This document shows positions 891 through 48,357 of a DNA stretch of 48,618 nucleotides, piece after piece. The DNA lies in assembly GCA_020630805.1 (NCBI GenBank), contig JAHDIM010000004.1:1-48618 (forward strand), in the 5' to 3' direction. The stretch's first letter is position 1. The number at the start of each line of letters is the position of its first letter. The notes beneath the pieces are model-generated. The model saw only the letters and a list, made by a program, of their open reading frames with translations, ran no database searches and had not been told where the DNA came from. The DNA is from Anaerolineales bacterium (lineage in GTDB: Bacteria > Chloroflexota > Anaerolineae > Anaerolineales > UBA6668). The position numbers and the translations under genes were made by a program.

Positions 891-1303
891 GAAGTAGAGA
901 GTAGAGAGAAAGAGTAAGAGCTGACTTAGCTGCCAAGTTTCGTTAATATAGCTGCGATTTCGTTGGCTTCTGCGCGAAGTGATTTGTATTGTTCCGCAGA
1001 AATATTGCCTCGCTTGCCAGCCATTACTAACAAGCTGATTACTTCGTAGACCGATCCTTTAGCAACACGAAAGAAGTATTTCCTTTCTTTTTCACCATCA
1101 CGACCAGTCGCTTCGGCAATGTTAGTAGGCACGCTAAGCGCCGCTCGCCTCAATTGCTCACCAATTGAATATTGATATTCTTTCGGCAAGCTCTGAGCGA
1201 TATCCATCGCTTCATTTGCCCAGTCTATACTGCGCTTCCAGACTTCTAAGCGCTCGAATTTGAAGAACGCCATTCTCTTACTCTCTACTCTTTCTCTTAC
1301 TTT
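891..1303. repeat. Inverted-repeat-bounded element enclosing the S23-family ORF, GTAGAGAGTAAGAG family
   Basis: Left arm AGTAGAGAGTAGAGAGAAAGAGTAAGAG (892-919); right arm CTCTTACTCTCTACTCTTTCTCTTACT (1275-1301), whose reverse complement is AGTAAGAGAAAGAGTAGAGAGTAAGAG. Confidence 0.8.
926..1273 (-). CDS. Four-helix-bundle protein (S23 / 23S rRNA intervening-sequence protein family)
   Basis: MAFFKFERLEVWKRSIDWANEAMDIAQSLP...YSIGEQLRRAALSVPTNIAEATGRDGEKERKYFFRVAKGSVYEVISLLVMAGKRGNIS matches the S23/IVP family pattern (FExLxVWxxa ... qxRRAAxSvptNIAEa). Confidence 0.88.
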   Translation of the reverse strand: MAFFKFERLEVWKRSIDWANEAMDIAQSLPKEYQYSIGEQLRRAALSVPTNIAEATGRDGEKERKYFFRVAKGSVYEVISLLVMAGKRGNISAEQYKSLRAEANEIAAILTKLGS

Positions 1304-2779
1304 TTAGAACTGCCGTGACCATTCCTTCGGCCAGCGTTCCACCACAACCTTCGTTTGCGTGAAGAATTCCACAGCGTGGCTACCTTGACCGTGCAAGGTT
1401 CCAAAGAAGCTGTCTTTCCAGCCGCTGAATGGGAAGTAGGCCATTGGTGCAGCAACACCAATGTTGATGCCGATGTTCCCGGCTTGCGCTTCGTAGCGGA
1501 ACTTGCGAGCGGCATAGCCACTTTGAGTGAACAAGCAGGCCATATTGCCATATTGACCGCCGTTGACGAAGGCAATCGCATCATCAATCGTGGCGACGTG
1601 GACGAGGCTGAGCACTGGACCAAAGATTTCAGTCTTAGCAATTTCACCGTTCGGATCAACGCCTGACAAGACGGTTGGTTTTACAAATGAGCCGTTTTCG
1701 TAGCCTGAGATGGACGCATTGCGTCCGTCAACTAAGACGTTTGCCCCTTCGTCGGCGCCTTTTTGGATCAGACCTTCAATGCGCCCACGACTGCGCTTAT
1801 CGATGACGGTACCCATTTGCACGCCTTCGTCCAAGCCATAGCCAGTGACGCGTTGCGCTGCCATGTCAGCAATCGCTTCTGTGAAAATGTTGCCCGCTTC
1901 ACCAACGGTGACAGCAACAGATGCGGCTAGACAGCGTTGACCGGCGCAGCCAAAGGCTGAATCAGCAGCAATCTTGGTGGTCATTTCCATGTCTGCATCT
2001 GGCAGCACGATGATTGGGTTCTTCGCCCCACCCTGTGCCTGCACGCGTTTGCCGTTGGCAGTGCCGCGTGAGTAGACATATTTTGCAACTGGGGTTGACC
2101 CGACAAAGCTGATCGCACGCACATCTGGATGATCCAACATCGCATCGACGCTGTCTTTGCCGCCGTGTACCATTTGAAGCACGCCCGGTGGCAGGTCAAG
2201 ATGTTCGTCAACAAGTTGGAAGATCTTTTGCATTGTCAGCGGTACTTTTTCAGACGGTTTGACAATGAAGGTGTTCCCACAGGCAATTGCATAAGGCAAA
2301 AACCAGAAGCTGATCATGCCTGGGAAGTTGAATGGCGCGATACATCCACAGACGCCAACAGGCTGGCGGATCATCAATTCGTCGATGCCGCTGGCAATGT
2401 CTTCAGAGACATCGCCCTGCATCATTTTAGGAATGCCACAGGCGACTTCGACATTTTCAATGGCACGTACCATTTCGCCGCGTGATTCAGCTAAGGTCTT
2501 CCCACACTCTTGGGTGATGATTTCGGCAATTGCGTCAAAGTTGTCATCAAGAACGCGTTTTAGTTTGAATAGTTCTTGGATGCGGGTCCCTGCTGGCGTC
2601 CGACGCCAGCCATCAAATGCGACTTGAGCAGCTTCCGCTGCTGCATTCATGTCAGCACCGTCTGGCATTGGTACTTGTGCCAAGATTTCGCCAGTCGCTG
2701 GGTTTTCAACGTCTAAATAGGTGTCAGCACTAGAAGCTACCCACTCACCGTTGATGTAATTTAGTAATTTATCAGCCAT
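1304..2779 (-). CDS. iolA: Methylmalonate-semialdehyde dehydrogenase (CoA-acylating)
   Basis: 491 aa aldehyde dehydrogenase: [51 protein letters not shown], catalytic [12 protein letters not shown]. MmsA/IolA-type; within inositol cluster. Confidence 0.9.
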
Positions 2780-2809
2780 AACTCTTTTGTTTTCGATAAG
2801 AAAATTATG

Positions 2810-3952
2810 TCAAGCAACTTTTCTGTTGGCTTGCGTTTTGAGTGCATCCATCAATTCTGCAAGCGCCCATTCGTTATCTAGAGCGCGCTTCATCAACTGT
2901 GCTTGTGTTTCTGGGGCGTTACCGCCAATTGGAGGGTCTGAGTCGAGATTTGTCGGGAATGAATATCCTTCTGCAACGCAGGCAATGACGTTGTGAACTT
3001 CGCGCTCGGAAATGTCACCGGCTTGGACGCGTTCAAGCAACGCAGGATACGCTGCTTCAATCATCGCCGTCCGGTTGACAGTTTCCATTGCGCGACCGAA
3101 CGCAGATGAAACTTGAAATAAATTGACCAACCGATCGTTTTCAGATTGATTGGTGCCAGCGCCGTGAAATAGCGCTGGACTAAAGAAAATCAAATCGCCC
3201 TTTTCTAAAGGCAATTGAACGTAATGTTCGTCGAAGTATGCGCGGAACTCAGGCCGGCTGTAGGCCATGTAGCCCGGTTCGTAGGCTTGGGTAAATGGCA
3301 AGAACAGTGTTGGGCCAGTGACTAATGGCATATCAATTTGCGCAACGCCGCCTTGCAGCGTCAGATATTGGGACGCAATTTGCATGTGGGCGGGATACTG
3401 CGCAACGGTTGTCTGTGACTGAAATCCAAGATGATAGTCACGGTGTGAAGACTGCGCTTTGCCTTTTGGTTTTACATTATTGACCTGCGCGGTCATTTGA
3501 TAGTTCGGACCTAACCAAGCTTCACAAACGACAGCCATGGCTGAAGTCTTGTAACATTCAATGAATAATGCAGGGTCATGCAAGCAGGCTTTTTGCAGCG
3601 AATTCCAAATCCGCTCGTTGTTGCCGAAGTGATCGCCCTGCCCGCTACCGGCTGCTTTTTCTTGCTCAATAATGGCATGGAACGCAGCGGTGGAGTCATC
3701 CATCACGCTCAGGTCAGCAAATGCACCTTTGATGACAATGACACCCGGCCCATCTTTCAGTGCGCGGCAAAGTTCAGCTTTTAGCGCCTGCTCCTTATCT
3801 GCCCCATCTAACGCAGCTTCAATTGCTGCATTTTGATAGATCAGGATATCTTTCTGAACATCAGAGGCGTGTGGATAATCTGCAAGATCGGTGGATTGAT
3901 CACAGAGGGCAATCAAATCATCGAGTTTGATGTCGGCGTCGGAGTAGAACAT
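2810..3952 (-). CDS. Phytanoyl-CoA dioxygenase (PhyH) family Fe(II)/2-oxoglutarate oxygenase
   Basis: Likely start at internal ATG 3952 (MFYSDADIKLDDLIALCDQ) rather than 4048, because upstream codons lie in a repeat element. SSHRDYHLGF (HxD) and PALFHGAGTNQSENDRLVNLFQ (distal His/Arg) fit PhyH. Confidence 0.78.
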   Translation of the reverse strand: MFYSDADIKLDDLIALCDQSTDLADYPHASDVQKDILIYQNAAIEAALDGADKEQALKAELCRALKDGPGVIVIKGAFADLSVMDDSTAAFHAIIEQEKAAGSGQGDHFGNNERIWNSLQKACLHDPALFIECYKTSAMAVVCEAWLGPNYQMTAQVNNVKPKGKAQSSHRDYHLGFQSQTTVAQYPAHMQIASQYLTLQGGVAQIDMPLVTGPTLFLPFTQAYEPGYMAYSRPEFRAYFDEHYVQLPLEKGDLIFFSPALFHGAGTNQSENDRLVNLFQVSSAFGRAMETVNRTAMIEAAYPALLERVQAGDISEREVHNVIACVAEGYSFPTNLDSDPPIGGNAPETQAQLMKRALDNEWALAELMDALKTQANRKVA

Positions 3953-4060
3953 AGTTTGTTGGTTGGTAAGTTTGCTGGTTTCCCCGCCTTCGCGAGGACA
4001 GGTGTTGGTCCGTAAGCATCGAGCATATCTCACTAACCAACTATCCAACTAGCAAACTAA
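3953..4060. repeat. Intergenic inverted-repeat element, GTTAGTTTGTTGGTTGG family
   Basis: AGTTTGTTGGTTGGTAAGTTTGCTGG ... CTAACCAACTATCCAACTAGCAAACTAA; abuts the phyH start and iolD stop. Confidence 0.88.
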
Positions 4061-4061
4061 T

Positions 4062-5963
4062 CTACTGTTGATAATAGCGTTCGTTTTTAACCGCTGGCTC
4101 GTAATTTTCACGGGCAGCCTGCGTGTCTTCATTTGTTGAAACTTCAGCAATTGGCACGTCCCACCAAGTGTAGCCCGGGCAGCCAGCGTAGCGGTCGGTT
4201 TCAACATAGATACAGCAGGTGCGGTCGACGTTCTTTGCGTCTTGCAATGCTTGACGTACGTCAGCAATGCTCTTGCAGCGGAATGTGTGGGCACCCAGAC
4301 TTTCCGCGTTGGAAGCTAAGTCAATTGGCAAAAAGTTGACGTCATAGCCAGACTTATCGAGCTGGTGACTGCCATCTTCATTTTTGTACGCATAGCGCGT
4401 CCCAAAGCCGTCATCCCCAATTGAACGCGATAGTGCCCCAATTGATGCATAGCCTTGGTTGTTGACCAGTATGATCACCAATTTGTAGCCTTCTTGAATG
4501 GAGGTCACAATTTCAGACGGCATCATCAGATATGATGCATCACCCACGATGACGTAGACTTCGCGGTCTGGATCAGCCATTTTTGCGCCAATGCCACCGG
4601 CAATTTCGTAGCCCATACAGGAGTTGCCGTATTCAAGGTGATATTGCTTTGGATCAGTCGTGCGCCAGAGTTTGTGGAGATCGCCCGGTGCGGAACCAGC
4701 GGCATTGACGATGACATCTTTGTCATCACAGAAGGTGTTGATCGCGCCAATCACTTCCGCTTGCGCTGGCAATGGATTATTTTCTTGGGTGTAATACCCA
4801 GCAACAATGGTGTCCCATTCCGCTGCCAGTTCTTTGGCGCGGGCTTGGTAAGCGTCATCTGTTGACCAGCCTTCGAGCATTCCGGTTAGAACGTTCAACG
4901 TTTCACGGGCATCGCCAGTGAGCGGCAAAGCACCCTGCTTGAAGGAATCAAATTCGGCAATATTGATGTTCACAAATTTGACATCGCTGCCGCCCATGGT
5001 TTGGGAGGAGGTCATAAAGTCATTGAAGCGTGTCCCAATGCCAATGATGACATCTGCCTCTTGTGCAAGTGCATTTGCGGCTTTGTTGCCAGTCACACCA
5101 ATTGCGCCAACCGCCATTGGATGTTGGTAGTGTAATGAACCTTTCCCTGCTTGGGTTTCACTGACAGGAATGCCAGTGGCTTCTACAAATGCAGCCAGTT
5201 CAGCGGTGGCTTCAGAGTAGATCACCCCACCACCAGCAACAATCAAAGGGCGTTTGGCCGATTTGATCAGTGCCGCTGCGCGTTGCATGAGCGTGGCGTC
5301 TGGCGTTGGGCGTGGAATAAACCAGACCTTCTTTTCGAAGAACAAGGCCGGGTAGTCAAAGGCTTCCGCTTGCACGTCGTGTGGCAGACCAAGGGTGACT
5401 GTCCCAGTGTCAGCCTGCGAGGTGAGCACGCGCATCGCTTGTGGCAACGCAGCAATGAGCTGTTCAGGTCGGTTGATGCGATCCCAGTAACGAGAGACGG
5501 CCTTCAATGTGTCATTGGCTGACATATCTTGTGTATGCGTACTTTCGACCTGTTGCAACAAAGGCCCTGCAGAGCGACGTGAAAAAATATCGCCGGGTAA
5601 CAACAGCACGGGCAAGCGGTTGATGGTTGCGCCTGCTGCTGCTGTGACCATATTGGTGGCGCCCGGCCCAATGGAAGTGGTACAAGCCAACGTTTGCATG
5701 CGATTCGTCATTTTTGCATAACCGGCGGCAGTATGCACCATCGCTTGCTCGTTACGCGTTTGGTAATACGGCATGCTTGGCGTTTGGTGGAGCGCTTGCC
5801 CCATCCCTGCAACGTTGCCGTGCCCAAAAATACCAAAGACGCCGTTGATGAATTTGCGTTCAACGCCGTCTCGCTCGGTGTATTGATTGTTGATGTAGGT
5901 CACGAGGGCTTGTGCCATCGTCATGCGAATAGTGTTCGCCATAGTTCGCTCCGTTAGAGACAA
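4062..5963 (-). CDS. iolD: 3D-(3,5/4)-trihydroxycyclohexane-1,2-dione acylhydrolase (decyclizing), ThDP-dependent
   Basis: 633 aa ThDP enzyme: TRNEQAMVHTAAGYAKMTNR, TSIGPGATNMVTAAAGATINRLPVLLLPGD, GDASYLMMPSEIVTSIQEGYKLVIILVNNQGYASIGALSRSIG, typical of IolD. Confidence 0.95.
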   Translation of the reverse strand: MSLTERTMANTIRMTMAQALVTYINNQYTERDGVERKFINGVFGIFGHGNVAGMGQALHQTPSMPYYQTRNEQAMVHTAAGYAKMTNRMQTLACTTSIGPGATNMVTAAAGATINRLPVLLLPGDIFSRRSAGPLLQQVESTHTQDMSANDTLKAVSRYWDRINRPEQLIAALPQAMRVLTSQADTGTVTLGLPHDVQAEAFDYPALFFEKKVWFIPRPTPDATLMQRAAALIKSAKRPLIVAGGGVIYSEATAELAAFVEATGIPVSETQAGKGSLHYQHPMAVGAIGVTGNKAANALAQEADVIIGIGTRFNDFMTSSQTMGGSDVKFVNINIAEFDSFKQGALPLTGDARETLNVLTGMLEGWSTDDAYQARAKELAAEWDTIVAGYYTQENNPLPAQAEVIGAINTFCDDKDVIVNAAGSAPGDLHKLWRTTDPKQYHLEYGNSCMGYEIAGGIGAKMADPDREVYVIVGDASYLMMPSEIVTSIQEGYKLVIILVNNQGYASIGALSRSIGDDGFGTRYAYKNEDGSHQLDKSGYDVNFLPIDLASNAESLGAHTFRCKSIADVRQALQDAKNVDRTCCIYVETDRYAGCPGYTWWDVPIAEVSTNEDTQAARENYEPAVKNERYYQQ

Positions 5964-6069
5964 GGGTGTGAGGATAGGAGATAGAGGATAGAAGTTTCCG
6001 TTCCTCTATCTTCTGATCGTCAAGCGCGGACTTGTGCTGAGCTTGTCGAAGTAGCGCGTCCTCTATCTT
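5964..6069. repeat. Intergenic inverted-repeat element, GATAGAGGATAGAAG family
   Basis: GAGGATAGGAGATAGAGGATAGAAG ... CCTCTATCTTCTG ... CGTCCTCTATCTTTTA; fills the iolD-iolG gap. Confidence 0.85.
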
Positions 6070-7083
6070 TTAGTCAATCTCAGATATTTTTACTGGCCGG
6101 TTTTCTTTTAGAGACTTGGTTGCTGCCATTGCCAAAACGACCGGCCAGCGTCCATCGATGCCGTTTGTGGCCGGTTCTGTGTCGTTATCAACGCATTCAA
6201 TGAATGACTGCATTTCATTGACGTAAGCATCCATGTAACGTTCAAGAAAGAAATGGTATGGCAATGACCGTTGGATATGATCTGCTGTGCTCACGACTGC
6301 ATAATCAGGATGATGATTGGTCACTTGTACTTGACCGCCAGAGCCAAACCACTCAAGCCGTTGGTCATACCCATACGCCGATTCACGACAGTTATTGATG
6401 ACCGCAGAGGCCCCATTGGCATACTTCAACATCACCATAGCAGTGTCAATGTCGCCGCCTTCAGATCCGATCTTTTCGTCAACAAGGTTGCCGCCCGTGG
6501 CATAGACTTCCACAATTTCGCTGTCTGGCACGAAGAAACGCGCAAGATCAAAGTCGTGGACAGTCATGTCAAAGAACAGGCCACCAGATTTTTTGATGTA
6601 ATCGATTGGCGGTGGTGCTGGGTCGCGGGCGGTAATGACAATCAGCCGCGGATCTCCAAGTTTGCCGGCTGCAACTTGGGCTTGGGCTGCCGCAAAAGTC
6701 GGATCAAAACGCCGTTGAAAAGCAATAAATAGCTTGACACCTGCCTTTTCTACAGCGGCTAGTGCTTCATCGATCTTTGCAAGGTCGATGGCAATTGGCT
6801 TTTCACAAAAAATATGTTTACCAGCTTCAGCGGCAGCAATAATTTGTTCAGCATGAACATCACTACTTGAGCAGATTGCAACTGCATCAATGGTTGGGTC
6901 CGCCAAGATTTGGCGGTAGTCTTCGTAAATGGTTGAAACGTGAAGCTTTGCTGCGAGTTCTTCAGCAGCTGGCAGATACACGTCACTAATTGCGGCAAGA
7001 GTCGCATTCGGATTCCGATTGGCAATACTTTCACCATGGATCTTCCCAATACGCCCTGCGCCAATGAGGCCGATTCGTAACAT
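6070..7083 (-). CDS. iolG: Inositol 2-dehydrogenase / Gfo-Idh-MocA family
   Basis: MLRIGLIGAGRIGKIHGESIANRNPNATLAAISD...FCEKPIAIDLAKIDEALAAVEKAGVKLFIAFQRRFDP...GGLFFDMTVHDFDLARF. Confidence 0.92.
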   Translation of the reverse strand: MLRIGLIGAGRIGKIHGESIANRNPNATLAAISDVYLPAAEELAAKLHVSTIYEDYRQILADPTIDAVAICSSSDVHAEQIIAAAEAGKHIFCEKPIAIDLAKIDEALAAVEKAGVKLFIAFQRRFDPTFAAAQAQVAAGKLGDPRLIVITARDPAPPPIDYIKKSGGLFFDMTVHDFDLARFFVPDSEIVEVYATGGNLVDEKIGSEGGDIDTAMVMLKYANGASAVINNCRESAYGYDQRLEWFGSGGQVQVTNHHPDYAVVSTADHIQRSLPYHFFLERYMDAYVNEMQSFIECVDNDTEPATNGIDGRWPVVLAMAATKSLKENRPVKISEID

Positions 7084-7241
7084 AGTTTGTTAGTGGGTTG
7101 GTTTGTTAGTTTCCCCGCCTTCGCGAGGACAAGTGTTGGTTGACTAGCTAATGCTGTCATTTGTTTATTAACGCCATCAACTTTTTTATGAGATGGCACA
7201 AATGTAGCTTACCAACCAACTATCCAACTTACAAACTAACC
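7084..7241. repeat. Intergenic inverted-repeat element, GTTAGTTTGTTGGTTGG family
   Basis: AGTTTGTTAGTGGGTTGGTTTGTTAG ... TTACCAACCAACTATCCAACTTACAAACTAACC; shares a ~30-nt TTTCCCCGCCTTCGCGAGGACARGTGTTGGT segment with 3953-4060. Confidence 0.9.
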
Positions 7242-8030
7242 CTATTTTTCCCGCGCCCCAGTAATCAAATCAGCAATATCTTGCTGTGTGAGTTCACCTT
7301 TTATGTAAGTGCCCACGCTTTGGCCTTGGCGAATGATGGTGTAACTGTCTGACACTTGATAAATGTGATTCACATTGTGCGTAATGAAAATTACCGGCAA
7401 ACCACGATCCCGCGCAGCGCGGATGTAGTCCAGCACTTTGTTAGTTTCCTTTACAGAAAGTGCTGAGGTTGGTTCATCCAAAATGAGCAGCTTTGCACCG
7501 AAGTGAATGGCACGACCGATGGCAATCGATTGGCGTTCCCCACCGGACATCTTGCCGACTTTTTCTTCTGCTGAACGAATGTGAATGCCGATGTCTTTCA
7601 GCGAGTCGCGGCACTGATTTGCCATTTCACGCCGACGCAACCATTTGACTGGACCAATATCGGTCGTGAGTTCGCGCCCAAGGAAGAAATTGCGCCAAAT
7701 GCTCATGAGCGGAATGAGCGCCAAGTCTTGGTAACAGGTTTCAATCCCAAGGGCGCGGGCATCCGCTGGCGAATTGACTTGGACTTCTTCACCATCAAAG
7801 ATGATTTTGCCAGAGGTTGGTGTGTGGACACCGGTCAATACCTTGATCAGCGTGGACTTCCCAGCCCCGTTGTCGCCCATCAGTGCGCGGACTTCCCCGG
7901 CGCGGACTTGGAAATCGACACCGCGTAAGGCTTCCACCGTCCCAAAGCGCTTGGTGATATTTTGCATATCGACCATTACTTTTGCATCGGCAAATGGATC
8001 TTGTACTTTTTCTAAAACAGCTTCTGTCAT
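7242..8030 (-). CDS. Sugar ABC transporter ATP-binding protein, single nucleotide-binding domain (FrcA-like)
   Basis: Walker A GDNGAGKSTLIKVLTG, signature SGGERQSIAIGRAI, Walker B LLILDEPTSALS. Likely start ATG 8030 (MTEAVLEKV) rather than 8066. Confidence 0.9.
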   Translation of the reverse strand: MTEAVLEKVQDPFADAKVMVDMQNITKRFGTVEALRGVDFQVRAGEVRALMGDNGAGKSTLIKVLTGVHTPTSGKIIFDGEEVQVNSPADARALGIETCYQDLALIPLMSIWRNFFLGRELTTDIGPVKWLRRREMANQCRDSLKDIGIHIRSAEEKVGKMSGGERQSIAIGRAIHFGAKLLILDEPTSALSVKETNKVLDYIRAARDRGLPVIFITHNVNHIYQVSDSYTIIRQGQSVGTYIKGELTQQDIADLITGAREK

Positions 8031-8081: not shown

Positions 8082-8116
8082 CTGAGCCGGTCGAAGCCGG
8101 CCTTCGACCGGCTCAG
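8082..8116. repeat. Perfect 15-bp inverted repeat CTGAGCCGGTCGAAG-ccggc-CTTCGACCGGCTCAG (REP-like)
   Basis: Arms 8082-8096 and 8102-8116 are exact reverse complements; related TTCGACAAGCTCAG cores near 6030, 10850 and 11840. Confidence 0.9.
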
Positions 8117-10338: not shown

Positions 10339-10406
10339 TGGAATTGTCCTTTGTTCATTTCGAATGAACGTAAATCTAGTTTGGGTTGTAATTATTCGAG
10401 TCTAGT

Positions 10407-10560
10407 TTCTTAACACGGATAAGGAGGAACGCGGATGATTAGATTTTTGTACACGGATATTTTTCTTTATCCGTGTTCCTTCCCATCCGTGTAGGGATTT
10501 TTTAAGGATATTTGCCTAAAAGCCAAAATCCGTGTTCTTCCCTATCCGTGTTAAGAATCA
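10407..10560. repeat. Intergenic inverted-repeat element, AACACGGAT family
   Basis: TTCTTAACACGGATA at 10407-10421 is the exact reverse complement of TATCCGTGTTAAGAA at 10543-10557; interior carries further ACACGGAT / ATCCGTGT words. Confidence 0.9.
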
Positions 10561-10796
10561 AGTCAGCACTTGAGCAATCACGTTGGTTTTTGTAATGACG
10601 TTGATTTTGTTGTCTTCGAAAAGTGTGTGGCCTGCCGAAGACGATGAAAATATACAGTTTGTTTATTTATGCGTCAACAAATGCTCATTTATTGAAGATA
10701 ATTGATAATTTGTTGTACAATGCGCAACATGTGGGCGCAGCAGATGTTACATTTATGAGTTGTTGCGCTTAGTGCACATGCTTTGCAATTATTTAG

Positions 10797-10955
10797 TAGA
10801 TAGAAGATAGAGGACGCGCTACTAGCGGCTTCGCCTTGTTTTCAACACGACAAGCTCAGCACAAGTTCGCGCTCGAGGATAGAAGAGATCCTGCTTTCAG
10901 TAGAGATCTTGGTCCTAGCGCAAATACCTCTATCCTCTATCTCCTATCCTCAATC
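10797..10955. repeat. Intergenic inverted-repeat element, GATAGAGGATAGAAG family, with an internal GACAAGCTCAGCACAAG core
   Basis: Left arm GTAGATAGAAGATAGAGGA, right arm ACCTCTATCCTCTATCTCCTATCCTCAA; core shared in inverse orientation with 6010-6070. Confidence 0.8.
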
Positions 10956-10960
10956 ACCAA

Positions 10961-11722
10961 ATGAGTACAGTTCAGTCATTATCACGTGGATTACAAATCT
11001 TAGAGATCATGAGCAAGACCCAAGAAGGGGTTGGCGTCACTGATCTTGCCAAAGAATTGAAGATAGACAAAAGCAGCGTCACGCGCCTCATGCAAACACT
11101 TGTGATGCATGAGTTCGCTGCTAAGGCATCCAATTCACGGCGTTATATTTTGGGTCCCAAAGTGGGTCAGATTGTTGACAATTCTGCGGTAGGCTTGCCG
11201 CTAAAACATCAGTCGATGCCGATTTTGCAGGAGTTGGTAGAGAAAACGGGTGAAAACGCACACGTTGCCATTTATTCACAGGCGATGTGCTTAGTCGTGG
11301 CAGATATTGAATCCCCGGCGCAATTGCGGGTGGTCAGTGGCGAAGGACGGCTTATTCCGAACCACTGTACGGCCATTGGCAAATGCCTCATCGCCTTTGG
11401 CGGACATCCGATACCAAAGGAATTCTCGCAACACACTTCGCGCACCATTTCTTCACGTGATCAGTTCAAATTACACCTCGATCAAATTCGCGAGCGTGGC
11501 TATGCGATGGATGACGAAGAACACGAAATTGGCGTGCGCTGTGTCGCCGCGCCGGTCTATGACGGTGGCTTAGACGCTGTGGCCTCCATGGGGATCTCTG
11601 GACCTACCGTGCGCGTCACGCACGAAAAAGTGCCGGAACTGCTAGACATTGTGAAACGCTGTGCCCACCAGCTGTCTGAGCTGTTGACAGATATACGATT
11701 GGAAGATGCGATGCGCCCATGA
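10961..11722 (+). CDS. IclR family transcriptional regulator
   Basis: MSTVQSLSRGLQILEIMSKTQEGVGVTDLAKELKIDKSSVTRLMQTLVMHEF (wHTH) plus IclR effector domain GRLIPNHCTAIGKCLIAF ... RGYAMDDEEHEIGVRCVAAPVYD. Confidence 0.93.
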   Translation: MSTVQSLSRGLQILEIMSKTQEGVGVTDLAKELKIDKSSVTRLMQTLVMHEFAAKASNSRRYILGPKVGQIVDNSAVGLPLKHQSMPILQELVEKTGENAHVAIYSQAMCLVVADIESPAQLRVVSGEGRLIPNHCTAIGKCLIAFGGHPIPKEFSQHTSRTISSRDQFKLHLDQIRERGYAMDDEEHEIGVRCVAAPVYDGGLDAVASMGISGPTVRVTHEKVPELLDIVKRCAHQLSELLTDIRLEDAMRP

Positions 11723-11758
11723 GTAGTGACATGGTGCGCCATGTCACTACTCATGGGC
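11715..11758. repeat. Perfect 20-bp inverted repeat overlapping the iclR stop codon
   Basis: GCCCATGAGTAGTGACATGG (11715-11734), loop TGCG, CCATGTCACTACTCATGGGC (11739-11758). No T-tract follows. Confidence 0.95.
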
Positions 11759-12113
11759 CTGCCGCTACTCCCCCATTCGCTCCGCCAACTGTGCCCCAGC
11801 CCTCTAACCCTGGCGGTAACCCTCGAATTGTATTGGTAGGCTGAGCTTGTCGAAGCCGGGCGTGATTACACTCGCAACTCGGCTAGCGGCTAACCCTGCT
11901 CTATTTCTCTCAAGTAATAGAAAGCTGAGCCTACGCAGTCCGAGTCGGCCCGTTGGGCGCGCCTCTACATGGTAATCACTGGATTTGTCACAGCTTGAGT
12001 GCATCGAATATTTTCCGTGTTCTCCTCTATATCCGCGTATTCCGTGTAAAAATCCCAAACTGAATGCCAAACGCGTTGCCGCTGTATCCTAGTCAGCTTA
12101 TACTCAGCCCTAC

Positions 12114-13011: not shown

Positions 13012-13076
13012 GCCCACGAAGAACACTAAGAATCACGAAGATGGCTTTAAGACCTCCTTCGTGCCCTTCGTGGGCG
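13012..13076. repeat. Intergenic inverted-repeat element, CACGAAG family
   Basis: GCCCACGAAGAACACTAAGAATCACGAAG ... CTCCTTCGTGCCCTTCGTGGGC; CCCACGAAG pairs with CTTCGTGGG. Fills the coxD-coxE gap. Confidence 0.85.
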
Positions 13077-28334: not shown

Positions 28335-28430
28335 AAAATAATTAACCGCTAAATTGATAACGATTAATTGCTAACTGTGACGCCCCTCATTAGCCATTAA
28401 AAGTTATCCGTTTAGCCATTAATTATTAAA
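28335..28430. repeat. Intergenic inverted-repeat element, TTAATTGCTAAC family
   Basis: Left arm AATAATTAACCGCTAAATTGATAACGATTAATTGCTAACTG aligns to the reverse complement of the right arm, AATAATTAATGGCTAAACGGATAACTTTTAATGGCTAATG. Confidence 0.85.
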
Positions 28431-31340: not shown

Positions 31341-31497
31341 TTCTTAACACGGATAGGGATGAACACGGATTCCTTTTGTAGAACAATTATCTATTGCACT
31401 TATGAGGATAGCCGTTTTATGAATTTCAGAATTGGAAATCGCCATAAATCTCCTAGTAAAAATATCCGTGTTCCTCCACATCCGTGTTAAGAATCAA
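31341..31497. repeat. Intergenic inverted-repeat element, AACACGGAT family
   Basis: TTCTTAACACGGATAGGGATGAACACGGAT ... ATATCCGTGTTCCTCCACATCCGTGTTAAGAA. Confidence 0.92.
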
Positions 31498-35987: not shown

Positions 35988-36112
35988 GGAGGTGGTTAGT
36001 GAGTTTGCACGTTAGTAGGTTGGTTAGTTGGGGCGTATTTTACTCGCAGTCTTGAGCAAACCACTAACAAACCAGCAAACTTACCAACCATCAAACTAAC
36101 AACCCACCCCAG
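35988..36112. repeat. Intergenic inverted-repeat element, GTTAGTTTGTTGGTTGG family
   Basis: GGTTAGTGAGTTTGCACGTTAGTAGGTTGGTTAG ... AACCACTAACAAACCAGCAAACTTACCAACCATCAAACTAAC. Confidence 0.82.
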
Positions 36113-37586: not shown

Positions 37587-37690
37587 GTCTTAACACGGAG
37601 TTCTGCTGAGCAACGCCGAAGTATAGGGAAGAACACAGATATTTACAAAATTGTCCCATCCGTGTTCCTCCGAATCCGTGTTAAGAATCA
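37587..37690. repeat. Intergenic inverted-repeat element, AACACGGAT family
   Basis: GTCTTAACACGGAG ... CATCCGTGTTCCTCCGAATCCGTGTTAAGAATC. Confidence 0.85.
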
Positions 37691-37693
37691 TAC

Positions 37694-38797: not shown

Positions 38798-38885
38798 GCA
38801 GGGTATTTAGCCGCGGACGAGCGCGGATGAACGCGGATGGGAGGTCTTGAAAGACCACAGGTGTCCGCAAATACTTTGTCTTTTT

Positions 38886-41823: not shown

Positions 41824-42108
41824 GTTGAATCTCCCAGAGTGGCTAGATAAAGATCATTATCACTATATAAAAATTCAAACCAAAAAATCGATCTTCCCAA
41901 TACCCTAGAAATTTGTAAAAACACAACAACTAAAGAGAGTCTGGATTGTACATAGTGAACAATTTGTTTAGCAAATGCAGGTCGATTATAACGTGATGCG
42001 CTTTTTCAACAAGTTGCAATCAAGGCATATTTATCACAATATAAAAACTAATTTCAGTGTCGTTTGTAATTTTTGCTGCAAAAGTTTCATTTTTCGACAA
42101 TGTGAATC

Positions 42109-42134
42109 AAAAACGCCACATCAAGGATGTGGCG
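42109..42134 (-). terminator. Rho-independent terminator of the aminotransferase/methyltransferase operon
   Basis: Minus strand CGCCACATC-ctt-GATGTGGCG-TTTTTG, 9-bp perfect stem plus T5. Confidence 0.85.
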
Positions 42135-42222
42135 ACATTCGTCAAACAATAGACACTAATTTTGAAAATTTCTCAGTTGAAGAACTCAGACATCTATGAA
42201 ATCCAGCCAACTTATGTGTAAC

Positions 42223-43347
42223 TCACAGCTGTTTTAGCGTCGTCTCAATGCGATTTAACGCTTCCAAAAGCGTCTCCCGACCTTGCCCAAAGGCAATTCG
42301 CAGGTGTTTATCCATCCCAAACGAATCGCCAGAGCCAACAAAGACGCTTGCTTCACGACAGAGACGTTCCATCAACGCAGTTGAATTGATATCTAAGTCG
42401 TATTTGATAAACGTAACAGCCGAAGCTTGCGGTGGCGTGTAGCTGAAAATTCCACCTTGGGCGTTCATCCATTCTTCGAGTGTAGGGAAGCCCTTGCGAA
42501 TATAGTCACGCGTGCGTTTGATAATGCGCGGTCGCACTTCTGGTGACAGCGCGTAAGCGGCCAATTTATTGCTAAGCGCCGTCGCAGTAATTGCCGTGTA
42601 CTCATGTCGTCGCCAGATATCCTCAATTGTTTCTGGTGGCCCAACAATCCAACCGACGCGTAAGCCTGGCAGACCATACGCCTTGCTCATGCTACCCACA
42701 GCCAACACTTTGTCATACATTCCGTAAAACGATGGTGTTTCATCCACCTGTTCACGTTCTGCACCAGCATAGACTTCATCGGCCAAAATCCAAGCGCCGA
42801 CTGAATCTGCGATCTCAATAACAGCCTGCATTTCTGCATCAGTCATAATGTAGCCAGTCGGATTATTCGGATTACAAACATAAATGAGTTTAGTTTTCTC
42901 GTTTACGTTATTGCGAAGTTCATCTAAATCTACAGCCCAGCCAGCGTCAGGCAAATGGCTAAATGTGCGCACAACATGTCCTGCGTTTAGGGCAATGCCC
43001 CACACCTGTTTATAAGTTGGCGTTTGCGACACAACTTCATCACCGGGTTCAAGTAAGGTTTGCAGAATGATGTTGTTCGCTTCTGATGCTCCTACGGTTA
43101 CCAACACGTTCGGAACGTTTGCCCCCTTATACAAGCGCGCAATATTCTCACGCAGGTCTGGATTGCCATTGACATGCGGATAGTTGATTTCACTACTCAG
43201 CATCTCTTCCAACAGCGCTCCATTGCCATCGATCAACTCTGCAAGTTGCATTGGATGCACCCCGCTTTCAGTCAGGTTGTAGTCAACAACTTGCTCCCAA
43301 ATGGATTGATGATGTTCTAACTCAAAGACTTGAAAAGGTTTACTCAT
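42223..43347 (-). CDS. PLP-dependent class I/II aminotransferase
   Basis: VTVGASEANNIILQTLLEPGDEVV, VCNPNNPTGYIM, ILADEVYAG, AVGSMSKAYGLPGLRVGWIVG. Confidence 0.92.
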   Translation of the reverse strand: MSKPFQVFELEHHQSIWEQVVDYNLTESGVHPMQLAELIDGNGALLEEMLSSEINYPHVNGNPDLRENIARLYKGANVPNVLVTVGASEANNIILQTLLEPGDEVVSQTPTYKQVWGIALNAGHVVRTFSHLPDAGWAVDLDELRNNVNEKTKLIYVCNPNNPTGYIMTDAEMQAVIEIADSVGAWILADEVYAGAEREQVDETPSFYGMYDKVLAVGSMSKAYGLPGLRVGWIVGPPETIEDIWRRHEYTAITATALSNKLAAYALSPEVRPRIIKRTRDYIRKGFPTLEEWMNAQGGIFSYTPPQASAVTFIKYDLDINSTALMERLCREASVFVGSGDSFGMDKHLRIAFGQGRETLLEALNRIETTLKQL

Positions 43348-44489
43348 ACGTTTTTGACCACCACAAAAGATTCATCTTGAAACCAAAGGCCACCGTGTCG
43401 TTGCAGAACTTTCTGCGTGACATCAATATATTTCCCATTACGCAGCATCGCATTGATGCGATCATCTTCTATTTGCGCCACGTACACTGCCGCATTCCAA
43501 GCTGCTAACAAAGTAGAGGTACCAATGTTACTGCCAATTTCGTCAGGCAAGGCATGCATATGATATGTGAACAAGGCTCGACTGTCGTGATGCGCATCAA
43601 AGGTAAAGCGTTCGCCCTCAGCATTCAAATAGTCCCGCAAGGTGCGGATGAGTAAATGACGTGGCGTCGCAAATGGCTCTTCGTCTGGCCACACTTTGCG
43701 TACAATCTCCATGCCGGGATCATGCCCAGTAGACTGGATCACGACCATGCGTCCATTTGGCGCGAGCGCATTGGCAAGCGGCCCAAGTACTTTACTCACT
43801 TTGAACTCTGCTGTTTGTCGGCTACGGTAAGGTTGTGCCGCCATCACAAGATCATAATTCGCAACGTGCTGACCGCGTTTGGGGATCAATCCATCCAGCG
43901 CAAACGCCTGATCTTTTCGGTACAACACCAACACAGACGGTGTCACATACAAAGGATTCCCCGTCTTTGGGCTGGATTTCGTTTGCCAACCACGCGCCAA
44001 AATCTCATCGAGTTGGCCAATGCCTTGACTGAAATCGTGGGCGCTTTCGCCCTCAAGCGGAACATCCCACCACTGCAGCTTTTCTTTTGCCGATGTACGC
44101 CTTGGCTCCAGATACGGCGCTTCGGCATAATACAAATTCGTCAGCACAACAACCGTCTGCGGATGTTCCGCAAACCGATCTGCGAGTTTAGACAGCGTCA
44201 GCCGCGTGTCTTCCATGCTGATCTCTTTACCCACCACAACTTGCGGCACATTCTTGAAGCGGCAATGCATTTCACGCATCACGCGGCTAAGCACAGTGCC
44301 ATCGCCAACACCAGCATCAAAGACATTCAGTGACGGTGGCGTCGGGGTGATCTTGTCGAGTTCTTCACCAATGCGCTTTGAAATCTCAGTCTTTTCAGTT
44401 GTCGTGGTGACAAACATCAAATACTTTTCGCGATTATCAAAAAAGCGAATAGCGTTGTCGTCGGCTTTGGGTGTTTTTTCTTCAGTCAT
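43344..44489 (-). CDS. Putative SAM-dependent methyltransferase of uncharacterised subfamily
   Basis: Motif I-like NVFDAGVGDGTVLSRVMREM; late PNGRMVVIQSTGHD; ATGA overlap with the downstream aminotransferase. Confidence 0.65.
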   Translation of the reverse strand: MTEEKTPKADDNAIRFFDNREKYLMFVTTTTEKTEISKRIGEELDKITPTPPSLNVFDAGVGDGTVLSRVMREMHCRFKNVPQVVVGKEISMEDTRLTLSKLADRFAEHPQTVVVLTNLYYAEAPYLEPRRTSAKEKLQWWDVPLEGESAHDFSQGIGQLDEILARGWQTKSSPKTGNPLYVTPSVLVLYRKDQAFALDGLIPKRGQHVANYDLVMAAQPYRSRQTAEFKVSKVLGPLANALAPNGRMVVIQSTGHDPGMEIVRKVWPDEEPFATPRHLLIRTLRDYLNAEGERFTFDAHHDSRALFTYHMHALPDEIGSNIGTSTLLAAWNAAVYVAQIEDDRINAMLRNGKYIDVTQKVLQRHGGLWFQDESFVVVKNV

Positions 44490-44542
44490 TGAAAAATATT
44501 TTATTTAGCACTACACAGGAAATTCTTAACACAGATAGGTAA

Positions 44543-45715
44543 TTACGCTGACCAATCGCGTAATCGTTGGGTTGCTGCTCTAACCTTTTTTGTTGGGGTG
44601 CCAAGTGAAAAGCGAAGGTAGTCCGGCGATGTGGTGCCAAATGCCGCACCAGGCGTCAAACTCACCCCAGTCTCTCGTAGTAATTGTTGCACAAAGGTAG
44701 CTGTGTTTTCAACGCCTGGCACGCGTGCCCAGACGTACATGCCACCTTCTGGTACATTGGCTTCCCAGCCAATTGCCGCAATCGTTTCCATGATCATGTC
44801 ACGCCGCAGTTGATATTCGTCGTTACGCGCCATAAGCCACTCTTGTGAACCGGTAAGCGCTGTTGCTGCACCCGTCATCAAGGGTCGGAAAGAGCCTGTA
44901 TCTACATTAGATTTCCAACGCCCTAGATTGCGCAACACCTCAGCATTTCCAACCGCCGCCGCAGTCCGCCAACCTGCCATGTTATACGTCTTAGACATCG
45001 AGTTGAATTCAACTGCGACCTCTTTCGCGCCATCGATTTCTAAAACACTCGGTGCCCGATAGTCTCCAAACGTGATATCTGCATATGGGGCATCATGCGC
45101 CAAGATGAAATTGTGCTGATGCGCTAACTCCACGGCGCGTTTGAAAAAATCCAGTCCTGCCGTCGCCCCAGTCGGATTATTTGGATAATTGAGCCACATA
45201 ATTTTTGCACGCGCATAATCATCCGCAGAAATTGCATCAAAGTCGGGCAAGAACTTATTCTCAGCTAACAACGGCATGCGCACAACCACCCCACCCGCCA
45301 TCAGCGTTCCTGACGTGTACGTGATGTATCCCGGATCTGGCACCAGCACCACATCGCCAGCACCCACATACACTTGCGCCAAATTGAAGATACCTTCTTT
45401 ACTGCCCAGCAAGCTAAACACTTCAGTCGCAGGATCCAATGTGACCCCAAACCGATTTTGATAATACGTCGCCCATGCCTGACGATATTCAGGTGCCCCG
45501 TTGATCGGGCTGTAGCTATGCACAGTTGCATCATCAGCTGCACCACTCATGCTTTCGATAATAAAATTAGCAGGCGGCATATCTGGCGCACCGATATCGA
45601 GGCGTAAGATTTCGACGCCGCTAGCGGCAACTTCAGCTAATAGCTGGCGAAGTTCAAAAAAATAGTTAGGCGGTAAGCTCTCCATACGGGGAGCGAGTTG
45701 GAATTGAGTTGTCAT
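44543..45715 (-). CDS. PLP-dependent class I/II aminotransferase
   Basis: LLGSKEGIFNLAQVYVGAGDVVLVPDPGY, LNYPNNPTGATA, LAHDAPYADITF, FNSMSKTYNMAGWRTAAAVG. Likely start 45715 (MTTQFQLAP). Confidence 0.92.
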   Translation of the reverse strand: MTTQFQLAPRMESLPPNYFFELRQLLAEVAASGVEILRLDIGAPDMPPANFIIESMSGAADDATVHSYSPINGAPEYRQAWATYYQNRFGVTLDPATEVFSLLGSKEGIFNLAQVYVGAGDVVLVPDPGYITYTSGTLMAGGVVVRMPLLAENKFLPDFDAISADDYARAKIMWLNYPNNPTGATAGLDFFKRAVELAHQHNFILAHDAPYADITFGDYRAPSVLEIDGAKEVAVEFNSMSKTYNMAGWRTAAAVGNAEVLRNLGRWKSNVDTGSFRPLMTGAATALTGSQEWLMARNDEYQLRRDMIMETIAAIGWEANVPEGGMYVWARVPGVENTATFVQQLLRETGVSLTPGAAFGTTSPDYLRFSLGTPTKKVRAATQRLRDWSA

Positions 45716-45865
45716 ATTCGAATATTTATGTAACAAACCAGAAAATTCTCAAAAATAGAATTGACGTTAGATCTGTTTTTTTACTGAAGGTTTCGCATGC
45801 ATTTGTCGCATTTATTTCTGAATTCTTGTTGCGAAACACTTAGCATGGAGTGAAATCCATTGCTA

Positions 45866-45920
45866 ACAAACAAAACACGCTAAAGCGCGTTAAGTTGGTT
45901 TCAACATGCTTTGGCATGTT
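45866..45920 (-). terminator. Tandem hairpins downstream of the dadA-like gene
   Basis: AACATGCtttgGCATGTT (45903-45920) and AACACGCTaaaGCGCGTT, followed by TTTTGTTTG on the minus strand. Confidence 0.65.
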
Positions 45921-45940
45921 TTCTTCTCTAGCAACCGAAT

Positions 45941-47149
45941 TCATTCGGCTTGCGATGTCAATATCCCTGTCACCTGCACCCCAGTCACCGGCCCCAGCGA
46001 CAGACCCAGCATGCCATGCCCGGTGGCATAAATCACATTTGGCACACGTTCACTACGTTCAACAATCGGTAACCCATCCGCAGACAGTGGGCGATAGCCG
46101 CTCCACGTTTCTTTGACTTCGACTTGCTCCATATCACGCAATGTACGCCGCAAGCCTTGCCAATTCTTCTCAATCCGATGCGGGTTGATGCTTGGGTCAA
46201 AGCCTGCCAATTCAAGCGTACTGCTAAATCGGAAGTCAGTGCCCAGCGGAGTAATCGCAAGCTTGTAGTCATCCACGGCAATTGCGCGATTGGGACCAGC
46301 AGTTGGTGCGGGTCGCTTCGCAGTAATGCTATAACCTTTTGCTGGTTGCATCGGAAGCCAGTCGCCAAGTTGCTTTGCAACTAAGCTTGTCCAAGCCCCC
46401 GCAGCCATCACAAATTGAGCACCCGAGACCATTCCGTTAGTCGTTTCAATTGCATTAATGCGACCTTTCTCAGTCTTGAAATCTTTGACTTCCGTGTCTT
46501 CAAGAATAGTCACGCCTTGCAACCCACACTGTTCTGCCAAAGCGGCAGTCAACTTGTCTGGATTGACTTGGGCTGGCTCAGGCCGAAATAGCCCGTGTTC
46601 AACTTCTGGCTGCAAATTTGGAATGAGTTCACGCAAATCATCGCGATCTAGCAAGTGACAGTCGACGCCAAAGTCATCCATCATTTGCTTTTCACGTTTC
46701 GCTGCAGCCACATATTTCTCCGCAAATTGGATCTGGACTAGCCCTTGTTGTGCAAAATCAAACTCTAAACCTTGCGCGTCCAATTCTTTATAGAGCGCCA
46801 AACTTTCTTGTAACTGAGACTTGAGAATGGGAGCGCCCTGCTGCACATTGTCATCCGTAGCCGCAGCGCGAAACTTCAGTAGCCAACGCATCAAATCAAC
46901 GTCCGCACGCGGCTTGATATAAAACGGACTGCTACGATCCAGCATCCATTTCAGTCCTTGGCCCAACACACCGGGCGCACTCGTCGGAATCACATGCGAT
47001 GTCGCAATCCAACAGGCATTCCCATGCGTCGCCGCTTGACCCAATCGATCGCGTTCAACAAGCGTGACACCGATGCCAGCTTTGGAGAGATAGTATGCGC
47101 AGCTTAGGCCAATGATGCCGCCGCCGATGATGACAACTTCGTTGTTCAT
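45941..47149 (-). CDS. FAD-dependent D-amino-acid dehydrogenase-like oxidoreductase (DadA family)
   Basis: VVIIGGGIIGLSCAYYLSKAGIGVTLVERDRLGQAATHGNACWI; ETWSGYRPLSADGLPIVERSERVPNVIYATGHGMLGLSLGPVTG. Confidence 0.9.
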   Translation of the reverse strand: MNNEVVIIGGGIIGLSCAYYLSKAGIGVTLVERDRLGQAATHGNACWIATSHVIPTSAPGVLGQGLKWMLDRSSPFYIKPRADVDLMRWLLKFRAAATDDNVQQGAPILKSQLQESLALYKELDAQGLEFDFAQQGLVQIQFAEKYVAAAKREKQMMDDFGVDCHLLDRDDLRELIPNLQPEVEHGLFRPEPAQVNPDKLTAALAEQCGLQGVTILEDTEVKDFKTEKGRINAIETTNGMVSGAQFVMAAGAWTSLVAKQLGDWLPMQPAKGYSITAKRPAPTAGPNRAIAVDDYKLAITPLGTDFRFSSTLELAGFDPSINPHRIEKNWQGLRRTLRDMEQVEVKETWSGYRPLSADGLPIVERSERVPNVIYATGHGMLGLSLGPVTGVQVTGILTSQAE

Positions 47150-47158
47150 GAGGGTTTA

Positions 47159-47246
47159 CTGATGAGTGACGAGTGATAAGTGAAATTGACCAACGGTTTA
47201 GCCAAACACTTAGGTTTACATCACTCGTTACTCATCACTCGTCAGA
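47159..47246. repeat. Intergenic inverted-repeat element, GAGTGATGAGTGACGAG family
   Basis: ACTGATGAGTGACGAGTGATAAGTG ... CATCACTCGTTACTCATCACTCGTCAG; the right arm encodes the last residues and stop of the Ldh2-family gene. Confidence 0.88.
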
Positions 47247-48238
47247 CTCCGAATCTTCTCAACAAGCTCCGTCTTGATCAGCCTCGGCTCAGTTGACAAG
47301 CGGTTCTTGTGCCGTCGTTGGCCCGGTAGACGTACACCATCCATGTTTTCCAACTTAGATAAGAAGTCTTCGCTATGCGCTTCCCAATTGTCACCAGCGA
47401 TGATCTTCGGTGACATCGCGATGATGAGCTGACCGCCCTGCGCTGGGCCGCCATCTTTGTTGTCCGCTTCGCCAGCTTCGTAGCTGAAATAGTCGCCAAC
47501 AAGCCCTGCCGACAACAGCTCTATCATCGTCGCAATGGCAGAACCTTTGTACGTTCCAAACGGCAAAATCACGCCACCTTGATGGACAGCTTTTGCGTCA
47601 GTCGTTGGGTTACCATCACTGTCTAGTCCAACACCTTCAGGCAACGCATGCCCATCACGCGCCGCAAGACCGACTTCACCGCGGGCCATTGCCGCTGTTG
47701 CCATATCAAACACGTACGGCGGTTTGTTTGGACGTGGCCAAGCAAACGAAATCGGATTGGTGCTGAAAAACGCCTTCTTCGCCCCATATGGCGCAACCAT
47801 CGGGGTATGTGCGGTACACGCCAGCCCCACTAATCCACGTTCTGCAATGGCTTCAGTTTCCGGCCAAAGCGCCGCGAAGTGATGGCTTTTGCGAATGGCA
47901 AGCACCGCAATCCCAAGGGTTTCAGCAGCATCTGCCAGCACGGGAATACCGCGCTCTAACGCCAGCGGTGCAAACCCATTATGCCCATCGAGCCTAATCG
48001 CAGCAGGTGTGACCGCTTCAATCTCAGGCTCCGCCTTGCCATTGACCTTGCCGCTCCGCAGCGAGGCCACATGCCCCGGAATACGAAAAAGACCGTGAGA
48101 CTCCGAGCCATCACGCTCGGCAGTACTCACGGTCTTTGCAACCGCAGCCGCGTTCGCAGAATCGCAGCCATTTGCCAGCATGCAGGTTTCTGCGAGGGTG
48201 TAGATTTGTTGGATAGTGAGAGGAGTTCTTTCAGACAT
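47228..48238 (-). CDS. Ldh2/MDH family oxidoreductase (malate/L-lactate/ureidoglycolate dehydrogenase; candidate pyrroline-2-carboxylate reductase type)
   Basis: AERDGSESHGLFRIPGHVASLRSG, HFAALWPETEAIAERGLVGLACTAHTPMVAPYG, FSTNPISFAWPRP, FGTYKGSAIATMIELLSAGLVGD. Likely start 48238. Confidence 0.9.
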   Translation of the reverse strand: MSERTPLTIQQIYTLAETCMLANGCDSANAAAVAKTVSTAERDGSESHGLFRIPGHVASLRSGKVNGKAEPEIEAVTPAAIRLDGHNGFAPLALERGIPVLADAAETLGIAVLAIRKSHHFAALWPETEAIAERGLVGLACTAHTPMVAPYGAKKAFFSTNPISFAWPRPNKPPYVFDMATAAMARGEVGLAARDGHALPEGVGLDSDGNPTTDAKAVHQGGVILPFGTYKGSAIATMIELLSAGLVGDYFSYEAGEADNKDGGPAQGGQLIIAMSPKIIAGDNWEAHSEDFLSKLENMDGVRLPGQRRHKNRLSTEPRLIKTELVEKIRSLTSDE

Positions 48239-48357
48239 CATAATGCGTAAGGTGTAATTCGTAACTGTGCTAAACACGACGGTTACGTAAAAGATTGCAG
48301 CTCATTATAGAGGGTGTCTCGAACAATCTTACGCATTACACGTTACGAATTACACCC
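48239..48357. repeat. Intergenic inverted-repeat element, GTAATTCGTAACGTGTAATGCG family
   Basis: ATAATGCGTAAGGTGTAATTCGTAACTG ... CTTACGCATTACACGTTACGAATTACACC. Confidence 0.88.

What the first reader, a model, noticed from the sequence alone, without database searches (positions are those of the whole stretch)
891..48357. A vocabulary of stop-to-start intergenic inverted-repeat elements fills many gaps between genes
At least nine intergenic gaps are occupied almost exactly from stop codon to start codon by an imperfect inverted repeat of roughly 65-160 nt (longer where an ORF is enclosed). Arms are degenerate short-word runs, and the word differs by family: GTAGAGAGTAAGAG (891-1303), GTTAGTTTGTTGGTTGG (3953-4060, 7084-7241, 35988-36112), GATAGAGGATAGAAG (5964-6069, 10797-10955), AACACGGAT (10407-10560, 31341-31497, 37587-37690), CACGAAG (13012-13076), TTAATTGCTAAC (28335-28430), GAGTGATGAGTGACGAG (47159-47246), GTAATTCGTAACGTGTAATGCG (48239-48357). 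Arms may supply stop codons and sit next to start codons. This looks like one structural class with several sequence families: mobile MITE-like elements with strict target preference, or processing/insulating RNA hairpins.
Basis: seen in the sequence. Interest (0 to 1): 0.85.

Follow-up and report, generated by a model that had tools for sequence, protein, structure and literature searches.

The report
Mobile intergenic hairpins with word-coded arms
The gaps between genes here hold degraded and cargo-less copies of a little-recognised class of small mobile DNA elements, found across bacterial phyla, whose hairpin arms are built from repeated short 'words' and whose complete forms carry one of two small genes (a four-helix-bundle S23 protein or a GxxExxY nuclease-like protein).

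Summary
The window is Anaerolineae (Chloroflexota). Nearly every S23 (PF05635) and GxxExxY (PF13366) gene in this genus and family sits inside such an inverted repeat. The cargo-bearing arms use the same words as the window's ORF-less gaps. Of 79 testable S23 loci across phyla, 61% are in word-armed inverted repeats against 5% of neighbouring ORFs; arms have a strict 7-nt period. GxxExxY arms use CRCRRAG/T words. S23 units lie between co-directional genes, sense-oriented in 56 of 57. Nostoc and Picosynechococcus plasmids give filled/empty pairs, down to a TAATG stop/start overlap split by an S23 unit. They also show an ORF-less form at an S23 site, and an ORF-less unit inside an S23 gene. So these are mobile elements; the gap hairpins are non-autonomous copies. 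'Strict target preference' is better read as survival. Who moves them, and whether arms act as DNA or RNA, is unproven. Closest known kinds: 23S rRNA IVS, MITEs, heptamer repeats.

The parts
892..1302 (-). Complete S23 unit: arms 892-920 and 1275-1302 (GAGAGTA words) around the S23 gene 926-1273
   Evidence: arms; PF05635 E 1.4e-29; same site filled in G001 and G002 with rewritten arms and in another family, G021
926..1273 (-). S23 / four helix bundle protein, 115 aa (TIGR02436, PF05635)
   Evidence: purifying selection pN 0.15 vs pS >=0.73 between congeners
3953..4061 (.). ORF-less GTTAG-word hairpin filling a gap in a minus-strand operon
   Evidence: same words in G001, different sequence in G002; shares 7-mers with arms of S23 gene L104; not significant alone
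5969..6069 (.). ORF-less GATAGAG-word (7-nt period) hairpin
   Evidence: p 0.005; (G001 same words, G002 remnant); words of S23 unit L103
7084..7241 (.). ORF-less GTTAG-word hairpin, present in all three congeners with rewritten arms
10402..10562 (.). ORF-less AACACGGAT-word element (ends TTCTTAACACGGAT ... ATCCGTGTTAAGAATC); absent at the orthologous gap of G001
   Evidence: words of GxxExxY gene L124
10797..10955 (.). ORF-less GATAGA-word hairpin, absent at the orthologous gap of G001
   Evidence: word assignment weak by 7-mers
13012..13076 (.). ORF-less CACGAAG-word hairpin
   Evidence: p 0.010; words of GxxExxY units L118 and L123
28335..28430 (.). ORF-less TTAATTG-word hairpin; the family has about 20 places in G000 and 2-3 in each congener; absent at the orthologous G001 gap
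   Evidence: words of S23 units L105 and L110
31341..31497 (.). ORF-less AACACGGAT-word element
35988..36112 (.). ORF-less GTTAG-word hairpin
37587..37693 (.). ORF-less AACACGGAT-word element with a 25-nt insert in the left arm, shared with three other loci of G000 and absent from the orthologous G001 copy
38806..38831 (.). Solo arm of the GCGGA-word (GxxExxY) family, also solo in G001
44521..44540 (.). Solo AACACGGAT arm (remnant); G001 has the complete element in this gap
47159..47246 (.). ORF-less GTGATGA-word (7-nt period) hairpin
   Evidence: p 0.005; words of S23 unit L095
48239..48357 (.). ORF-less GTAATTC-word (7-nt period) hairpin
   Evidence: p 0.010; words of S23 unit L107

Best explanation
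The gap hairpins are cargo-less copies and remnants of small mobile elements. A complete element has two inverted arms, each a run of one degenerate word, around a single short gene: S23 (7-nt words as a rule) or GxxExxY, a PD-(D/E)XK-family protein (CRCRRAG/T-type words spaced 8-10 nt). SHOWN: the cargo/arm association, the word grammars, sense orientation inside operons, presence/absence at the same gene junction, and ORF-less copies sharing words with cargo-bearing ones in the same genomes. INFERRED: insertions survive mainly where no gene is broken, i.e. between a stop and the next start. The cargo has no need of its own promoter and is expressed by operon read-through. The cargo protein recognises the words and, alone or with host enzymes, helps move any unit carrying them, so cargo-less copies outnumber complete ones. 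The arms are rewritten by slippage and by copying between arms and between dispersed copies, so the word drifts while pairing and period persist.
For: Cargo in word arms in four genomes; each ORF-less window family best matches the arms of a cargo gene in the genus, apart from one weak case and one short remnant. Of 79 S23 loci from many phyla 61% have IR score >=36 vs 5% of control ORFs; arm self-identity 0.55/0.50/0.43 at lags 7/14/21 vs 0.28-0.31. GxxExxY arms strongly paired in 14 of 22. Sense orientation 56 of 57 in co-directional junctions. Filled/empty junctions: TraM|hyp in Nostoc plasmids incl. an ORF-less form sharing the S23 unit's left end, and a 289-nt insert flanked by a 4-bp GTCA repeat; C|D, B|C and cas10|cmr3 junctions, and an ORF-less unit inside an S23 gene. 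CACGAAG words co-occur with PF13366 in Chloroflexota: 24/59 vs 4/242 genomes with >=3 hits, p 1e-15; 292-482 word-pair hits in each genome of one genus. Four G000 loci share a derived 25-nt insert. S23 is under purifying selection.
Against: No movement was observed. Flanking direct repeats are short and uneven (about 1, 3, 4, 5 nt), and some insertions replaced host bases, unlike a standard transposase with fixed duplications. Neither cargo is a known mobilising enzyme. One genome (G248) has 113 CACGAAG word pairs and no detected PF13366. About 40% of S23 loci show no strong inverted repeat. The co-occurrence test ignores phylogenetic non-independence. The GTTAG family has period 4/8, not 7.
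Confidence: 0.7

Rival explanations
1. IVS-type RNA elements: the unit acts in the transcript. Arms pair in the polycistronic mRNA, RNase III cuts the stem as in 23S rRNA intervening sequences, and mobility goes through RNA. This is compatible with the mobile-element claim and differs on the level at which the arms work.
For: S23 is the gene of 23S rRNA IVS elements, which are excised by RNase III (PMC4990558). Sense orientation in 56 of 57 co-directional junctions. S23 shows a weak match to the DGR protein Avd.
Against: Sense-strand mispairs are A.C more than G.U (103 vs 64, pooled p 0.003, per-locus sign test p 0.26), the opposite of RNA-pairing selection. None of 80 S23 loci lies in an rRNA gene.
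Confidence: 0.3
2. MITEs moved by an unrelated transposase, with S23 and GxxExxY as passengers that happen to sit between the arms.
For: Dispersed ORF-less copies with constant ends; cargo-less copies far outnumber cargo genes.
Against: Two unrelated cargo types recur with two distinct word grammars across phyla; word presence tracks GxxExxY presence; S23 is under purifying selection. No transposase shares these arms in the loci examined.
Confidence: 0.2
3. Immobile intercistronic RNA hairpins (processing or insulation) that grew in place by replication slippage and template switching.
For: Same gap keeps the same word family in congeners with rewritten arms; operon position.
Against: Whole-unit gain/loss at fixed junctions including an S23 gene; a derived insert shared by four dispersed loci; cargo genes.
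Confidence: 0.07
4. Chance pairing of low-complexity intergenic DNA.
For: Three of the listed gaps are not significant on their own.
Against: 13 of 28 gaps at p<=0.01 vs 0.3 expected; cargo association and period in other phyla.
Confidence: 0.01

Closest known systems
23S rRNA intervening sequences (IVS) with the S23 ORF (Leptospira, Coxiella)
   Same: Same protein family, element length about 400 nt, ORF inside terminal inverted repeats, regarded as selfish (PMC4990558)
   Different: Located between protein genes in operons, not in rRNA; arms made of repeated words; many ORF-less copies; a second cargo type (GxxExxY) with the same architecture
MITEs and similar non-autonomous palindromic elements (ERIC, NEMIS/Correia, RUP; from general knowledge)
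   Same: Short, dispersed, intergenic, inverted-repeat, no ORF in most copies
   Different: Arms are degenerate tandem words with 7-nt or 8-10-nt spacing that drift; no fixed target-site duplication; related autonomous form carries S23 or GxxExxY, not a transposase
Heptamer repeats: TAACTGA in Beggiatoaceae, cyanobacteria and Bacteroidetes (PMC4679880); Nostoc trnL P6b stem repeats TDNGATT / NNTGAGT (PMC4476775); cyanobacterial STRR
   Same: 7-nt degenerate units, intergenic near start codons or stacked in stems, several vocabularies for one structure, present/absent between relatives; one author proposed a repeat-binding protein as the mobile element
   Different: None links them to S23 or GxxExxY genes in the passages read; TAACTGA sets are direct repeats, almost never inverted
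Diversity-generating retroelement protein Avd
   Same: Weak sequence match of S23 to the Avd model (E 8e-5)
   Different: Far below the model's cut-off; no reverse transcriptase or DGR was sought or seen next to the units

Membership tests
23S rRNA IVS | Encodes S23 (PF05635 / TIGR02436) | tested here: met
23S rRNA IVS | Terminal inverted repeats enclosing the ORF | tested here: met
23S rRNA IVS | Located inside the 23S rRNA gene | tested here: not met
   No rRNA match in the window or in 80 S23 loci
23S rRNA IVS | Excised by RNase III | not testable with these tools
   needs RNA; wobble-pair test did not support RNA-level selection
MITE | Short, dispersed, non-coding copies with related terminal inverted repeats | tested here: met
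MITE | Precise presence/absence at orthologous sites | tested here: met
   plasmid junctions; in the window's genus presence/absence without base-precise ends
MITE | Fixed-length target-site duplication | tested here: not met
   flanking repeats of about 1, 3, 4, 5 nt, sometimes loss of target bases
MITE | Shares ends with a transposase-coding element | tested here: inconclusive
   shares arm words with S23 / GxxExxY units; neither is a known transposase
Heptamer (STRR / TAACTGA type) repeats | 7-nt unit periodicity | tested here: met
   S23-type arms; GATAG, GTGAT, GTAAT families of the window; not met for GTTAG and GxxExxY words
Known Rfam RNA family | Match at gathering score | tested here: not met

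The most novel reading that the evidence does not exclude
A separate class of mobile genetic element found across bacterial phyla, in which a small single-gene cargo (a four-helix-bundle protein or a PD-(D/E)XK protein, neither a known mobilising enzyme) recognises arms written in a drifting repeated word, and mobilises complete and cargo-less hairpin units into operon junctions by a mechanism that is neither standard transposition nor group II retromobility; rRNA IVS elements, STRR repeats and trnL P6b stems would be special cases.
Probability: 0.35. Interest if true: 0.92.

Novelty: new variant of a known kind. Interest (0 to 1): 0.8.

Why it matters
S23/'four helix bundle' and GxxExxY genes are widespread, and I found no described function for the free-standing ones in the open literature searched. 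Showing that they are the cargo of word-armed mobile hairpins gives them a likely role, links several separately reported puzzles (23S rRNA intervening sequences, heptamer repeats), explains why S23 turns up inside CRISPR operons as a passenger, and makes the old question of how rRNA intervening sequences move testable in culturable cyanobacteria and Bacteroidota.

Tried and rejected
G.U vs A.C test for RNA-level selection: A.C exceeded G.U, so no support and no ready explanation. Search for base-precise empty sites within the window's own genus: congeners are about 80% identical and noncoding ends are not resolvable. S23 as part of an rRNA intervening sequence here: no rRNA in the window or 80 loci. 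GxxExxY empty site in a Chloroflexota genus: all six genomes carry the gene there. Uma2 gene in the Synechocystis cas10|cmr3 gap as a third cargo: only 13-nt gaps, no arms. First pass on cargo flanks with a wrong choice of ORF was discarded and redone. The co-directional, sense-oriented location alone is not proof of targeting, since genes in operons are often so arranged; controls were 70% of adjacent pairs and 19 of 25 sense triples. The heptad-order test (95% of loci above z=2) is biased upward because arms were chosen by their best alignment.
Full report
WHERE. The window is contig C70 of a 4.67-Mb draft genome in 500 contigs. A contig that appears to be one of its congener G002 (same length, 8,119 bases, S23 gene at the matching place) bears the title 'Anaerolineales bacterium isolate MAG-12', so this is Chloroflexota, Anaerolineae. 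Two congeners (G001 about 80%, G002 about 70-80% identical in genes) have syntenic contigs.

OBSERVATION. 13 of 28 gaps reach p<=0.01 against dinucleotide shuffles (0.28 expected) and coding windows do not. Nine listed places pass alone. 878-1303, 3953-4061 and 37587-37693 do not, and 10797-10955 was not tested separately. About half the units run almost from stop to start; others lie inside longer gaps.

CARGO. The ORF enclosed at 926-1273 is S23, the protein of 23S rRNA intervening sequences (PF05635 E 1.4e-29; TIGR02436). All S23 and GxxExxY genes were pulled from G000-G003 and their flanks compared. Most sit in an inverted repeat whose arms are runs of a word: GAGAGTA, GACAGAG, GATAGAG, GTGATTAG, AGGTAATAGG, AGCTGTTGGCT, GTTAG, TTAATTG, GTAATTCGTAATGCG for S23; CGCTGAG, GCGGACGAGCGCGGA, CACGAAG, CACGAAT, AACACGGAT for GxxExxY. 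By shared 7-mers the window's ORF-less units match the arms of the expected cargo gene; control gaps match none in particular; 10797 is ambiguous and the short remnant at 44521 uninformative. So the 'vocabulary' is the vocabulary of two kinds of cargo element.

GENERALITY. 80 S23 loci from named genomes of many phyla: 48 of 79 testable loci have inverted-repeat score >=36 against 10 of 194 neighbouring ORFs. Arm self-identity is 0.547, 0.499 and 0.428 at lags 7, 14 and 21 against 0.28-0.31 in control sequence. Words differ widely and are shared mainly among S23 proteins of high similarity (Mantel r 0.17, p 5e-4), so the word drifts fast while the period stays. GxxExxY loci of Chloroflexota: 14 of 22 score >=36, with words of the form CRCRRAG/T spaced 8-10 nt (ACCACAGAGACACAGAGG, CACGAAGGGCACGAAG, CACGGAT, CGCGAATGAA). 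CACGAAG word pairs occur three times or more in 24 of 59 Chloroflexota genomes with PF13366 and 4 of 242 without (p 1e-15, not corrected for relatedness); one genus has 292-482 hits per genome but few PF13366 genes. G248 is an exception.

POSITION. Genes flanking S23 are co-directional in 57 of 65 cases (adjacent pairs in the same loci: 100 of 142). S23 is sense to them in 56 of 57 (controls: 19 of 25). Outer arm ends are a median 4 nt from the upstream gene's end and 9 nt from the downstream start where the repeat is strong. Annotated examples: TraM|S23|hyp, radA|GxxExxY|FAD protein, cas10|S23|cmr3, and S23 between cas6 and cas4.

MOBILITY. In the genus: an AACACGGAT unit fills a G001 gap that is 30 nt in the window (2780-2809); a complete unit in G001 is a solo arm in the window (44490-44542); units at 10402, 10797 and 28335 are absent from G001. 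The TTAATTG family has about 20 places in G000 and 2-3 in each congener. Four AACACGGAT copies in G000 share a 25-nt insert in one arm that the orthologous G001 copy lacks, so dispersed copies exchange or replace sequence. Plasmids give sharper pairs. TraM|hyp in Nostoc: 50-52-nt empty gaps in four plasmids; S23 with GGGAACA arms in two; an ORF-less GGGAACT hairpin with the same left end in a third strain; and in p057_H a 289-nt ORF-less insert of another word flanked by GTCA. In a four-gene Nostoc operon, the C|D junction is a TAATG overlap in four plasmids (2-4 nt gaps in four others) and is split by an S23 unit in pNsp_c with ATG repeated; the B|C junction is 3 nt in five plasmids and holds an S23 unit with TCAGGAG words in three, one of them interrupted by an ORF-less unit of the same words. 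PCC 7002 has a 12-nt cas10|cmr3 gap, PCC 7003 an S23 unit. Flanking repeats vary (about 1-5 nt) and target bases are sometimes lost, so this is not a textbook transposase reaction.

PERSISTENCE AND REWRITING. The S23 unit of the window stands at the same junction in G001, G002 and, beside the same aldehyde dehydrogenase gene, in a genome of another family (G021), with words GAGAGTA, GACAGAG, GAGAGTA and GATAGGGA/GATAGAG. Within-element pairing is kept in each. The protein is under strong purifying selection (pN 0.15, pS >=0.73).

MECHANISM. Shown: element class, cargo, grammar, position, gain/loss. Inferred: survival between genes, expression by read-through, recognition of the words by the cargo protein, trans-mobilisation of cargo-less copies, arm rewriting by slippage and copying. 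Open: DNA or RNA level. Sense orientation and the rRNA precedent favour RNA; the excess of A.C over G.U in the sense strand (103 vs 64) does not.

KNOWN WORK. IVS elements with S23 are described only inside 23S rRNA in the paper read (PMC4990558). Heptamer repeats near start codons, absent from some relatives, are described in PMC4679880, whose author proposed an unknown repeat-binding protein as the mobile element. Nostoc trnL P6b stems use one of two 7-nt vocabularies (PMC4476775). Only two open papers mention GxxExxY, neither about this. 23S rRNA IVP is listed in a figure legend of CRISPR-linked domains in PMC10910872; the passenger reading fits. I found no paper joining these, within an open-access library; subscription papers and preprints were not searchable.

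Noticed in passing
   Followed up: partly
window 8082-8116, 5964-6069, 10797-10955, 11723-12113: A second palindromic motif (GCTGAGC.. TTGTCGAAG / CTTCGACCGGCTCAG) occurs alone and inside the loops of word-armed units, as if units nest.
   Followed up: no
window 11715-11758: A perfect 20-bp inverted repeat (GCCCATGAGTAGTGACATGG) at the end of an IclR-type regulator gene.
   Followed up: no
L328 1965-2394 and L329 1640-2417: S23 genes lie inside CRISPR operons (cas10|cmr3 of Picosynechococcus PCC 7003, between cas6 and cas4 in Anabaena 90), probably as passengers; relevant to reports of S23 as CRISPR-linked.
   Followed up: yes
G248: A Chloroflexota genome with 113 CACGAAG word pairs but no detected PF13366 gene.
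   Followed up: no
43 S23 inverted repeats: Mispairs between arms are A.C rather than G.U on the sense strand (103 vs 64), the opposite of what RNA pairing would allow; unexplained.
   Followed up: partly
L109, L111: One S23 subfamily (ASRAIADQLIRS) has the ACGCAGTACGCACTAC words on both sides in direct, not inverted, orientation.
   Followed up: no
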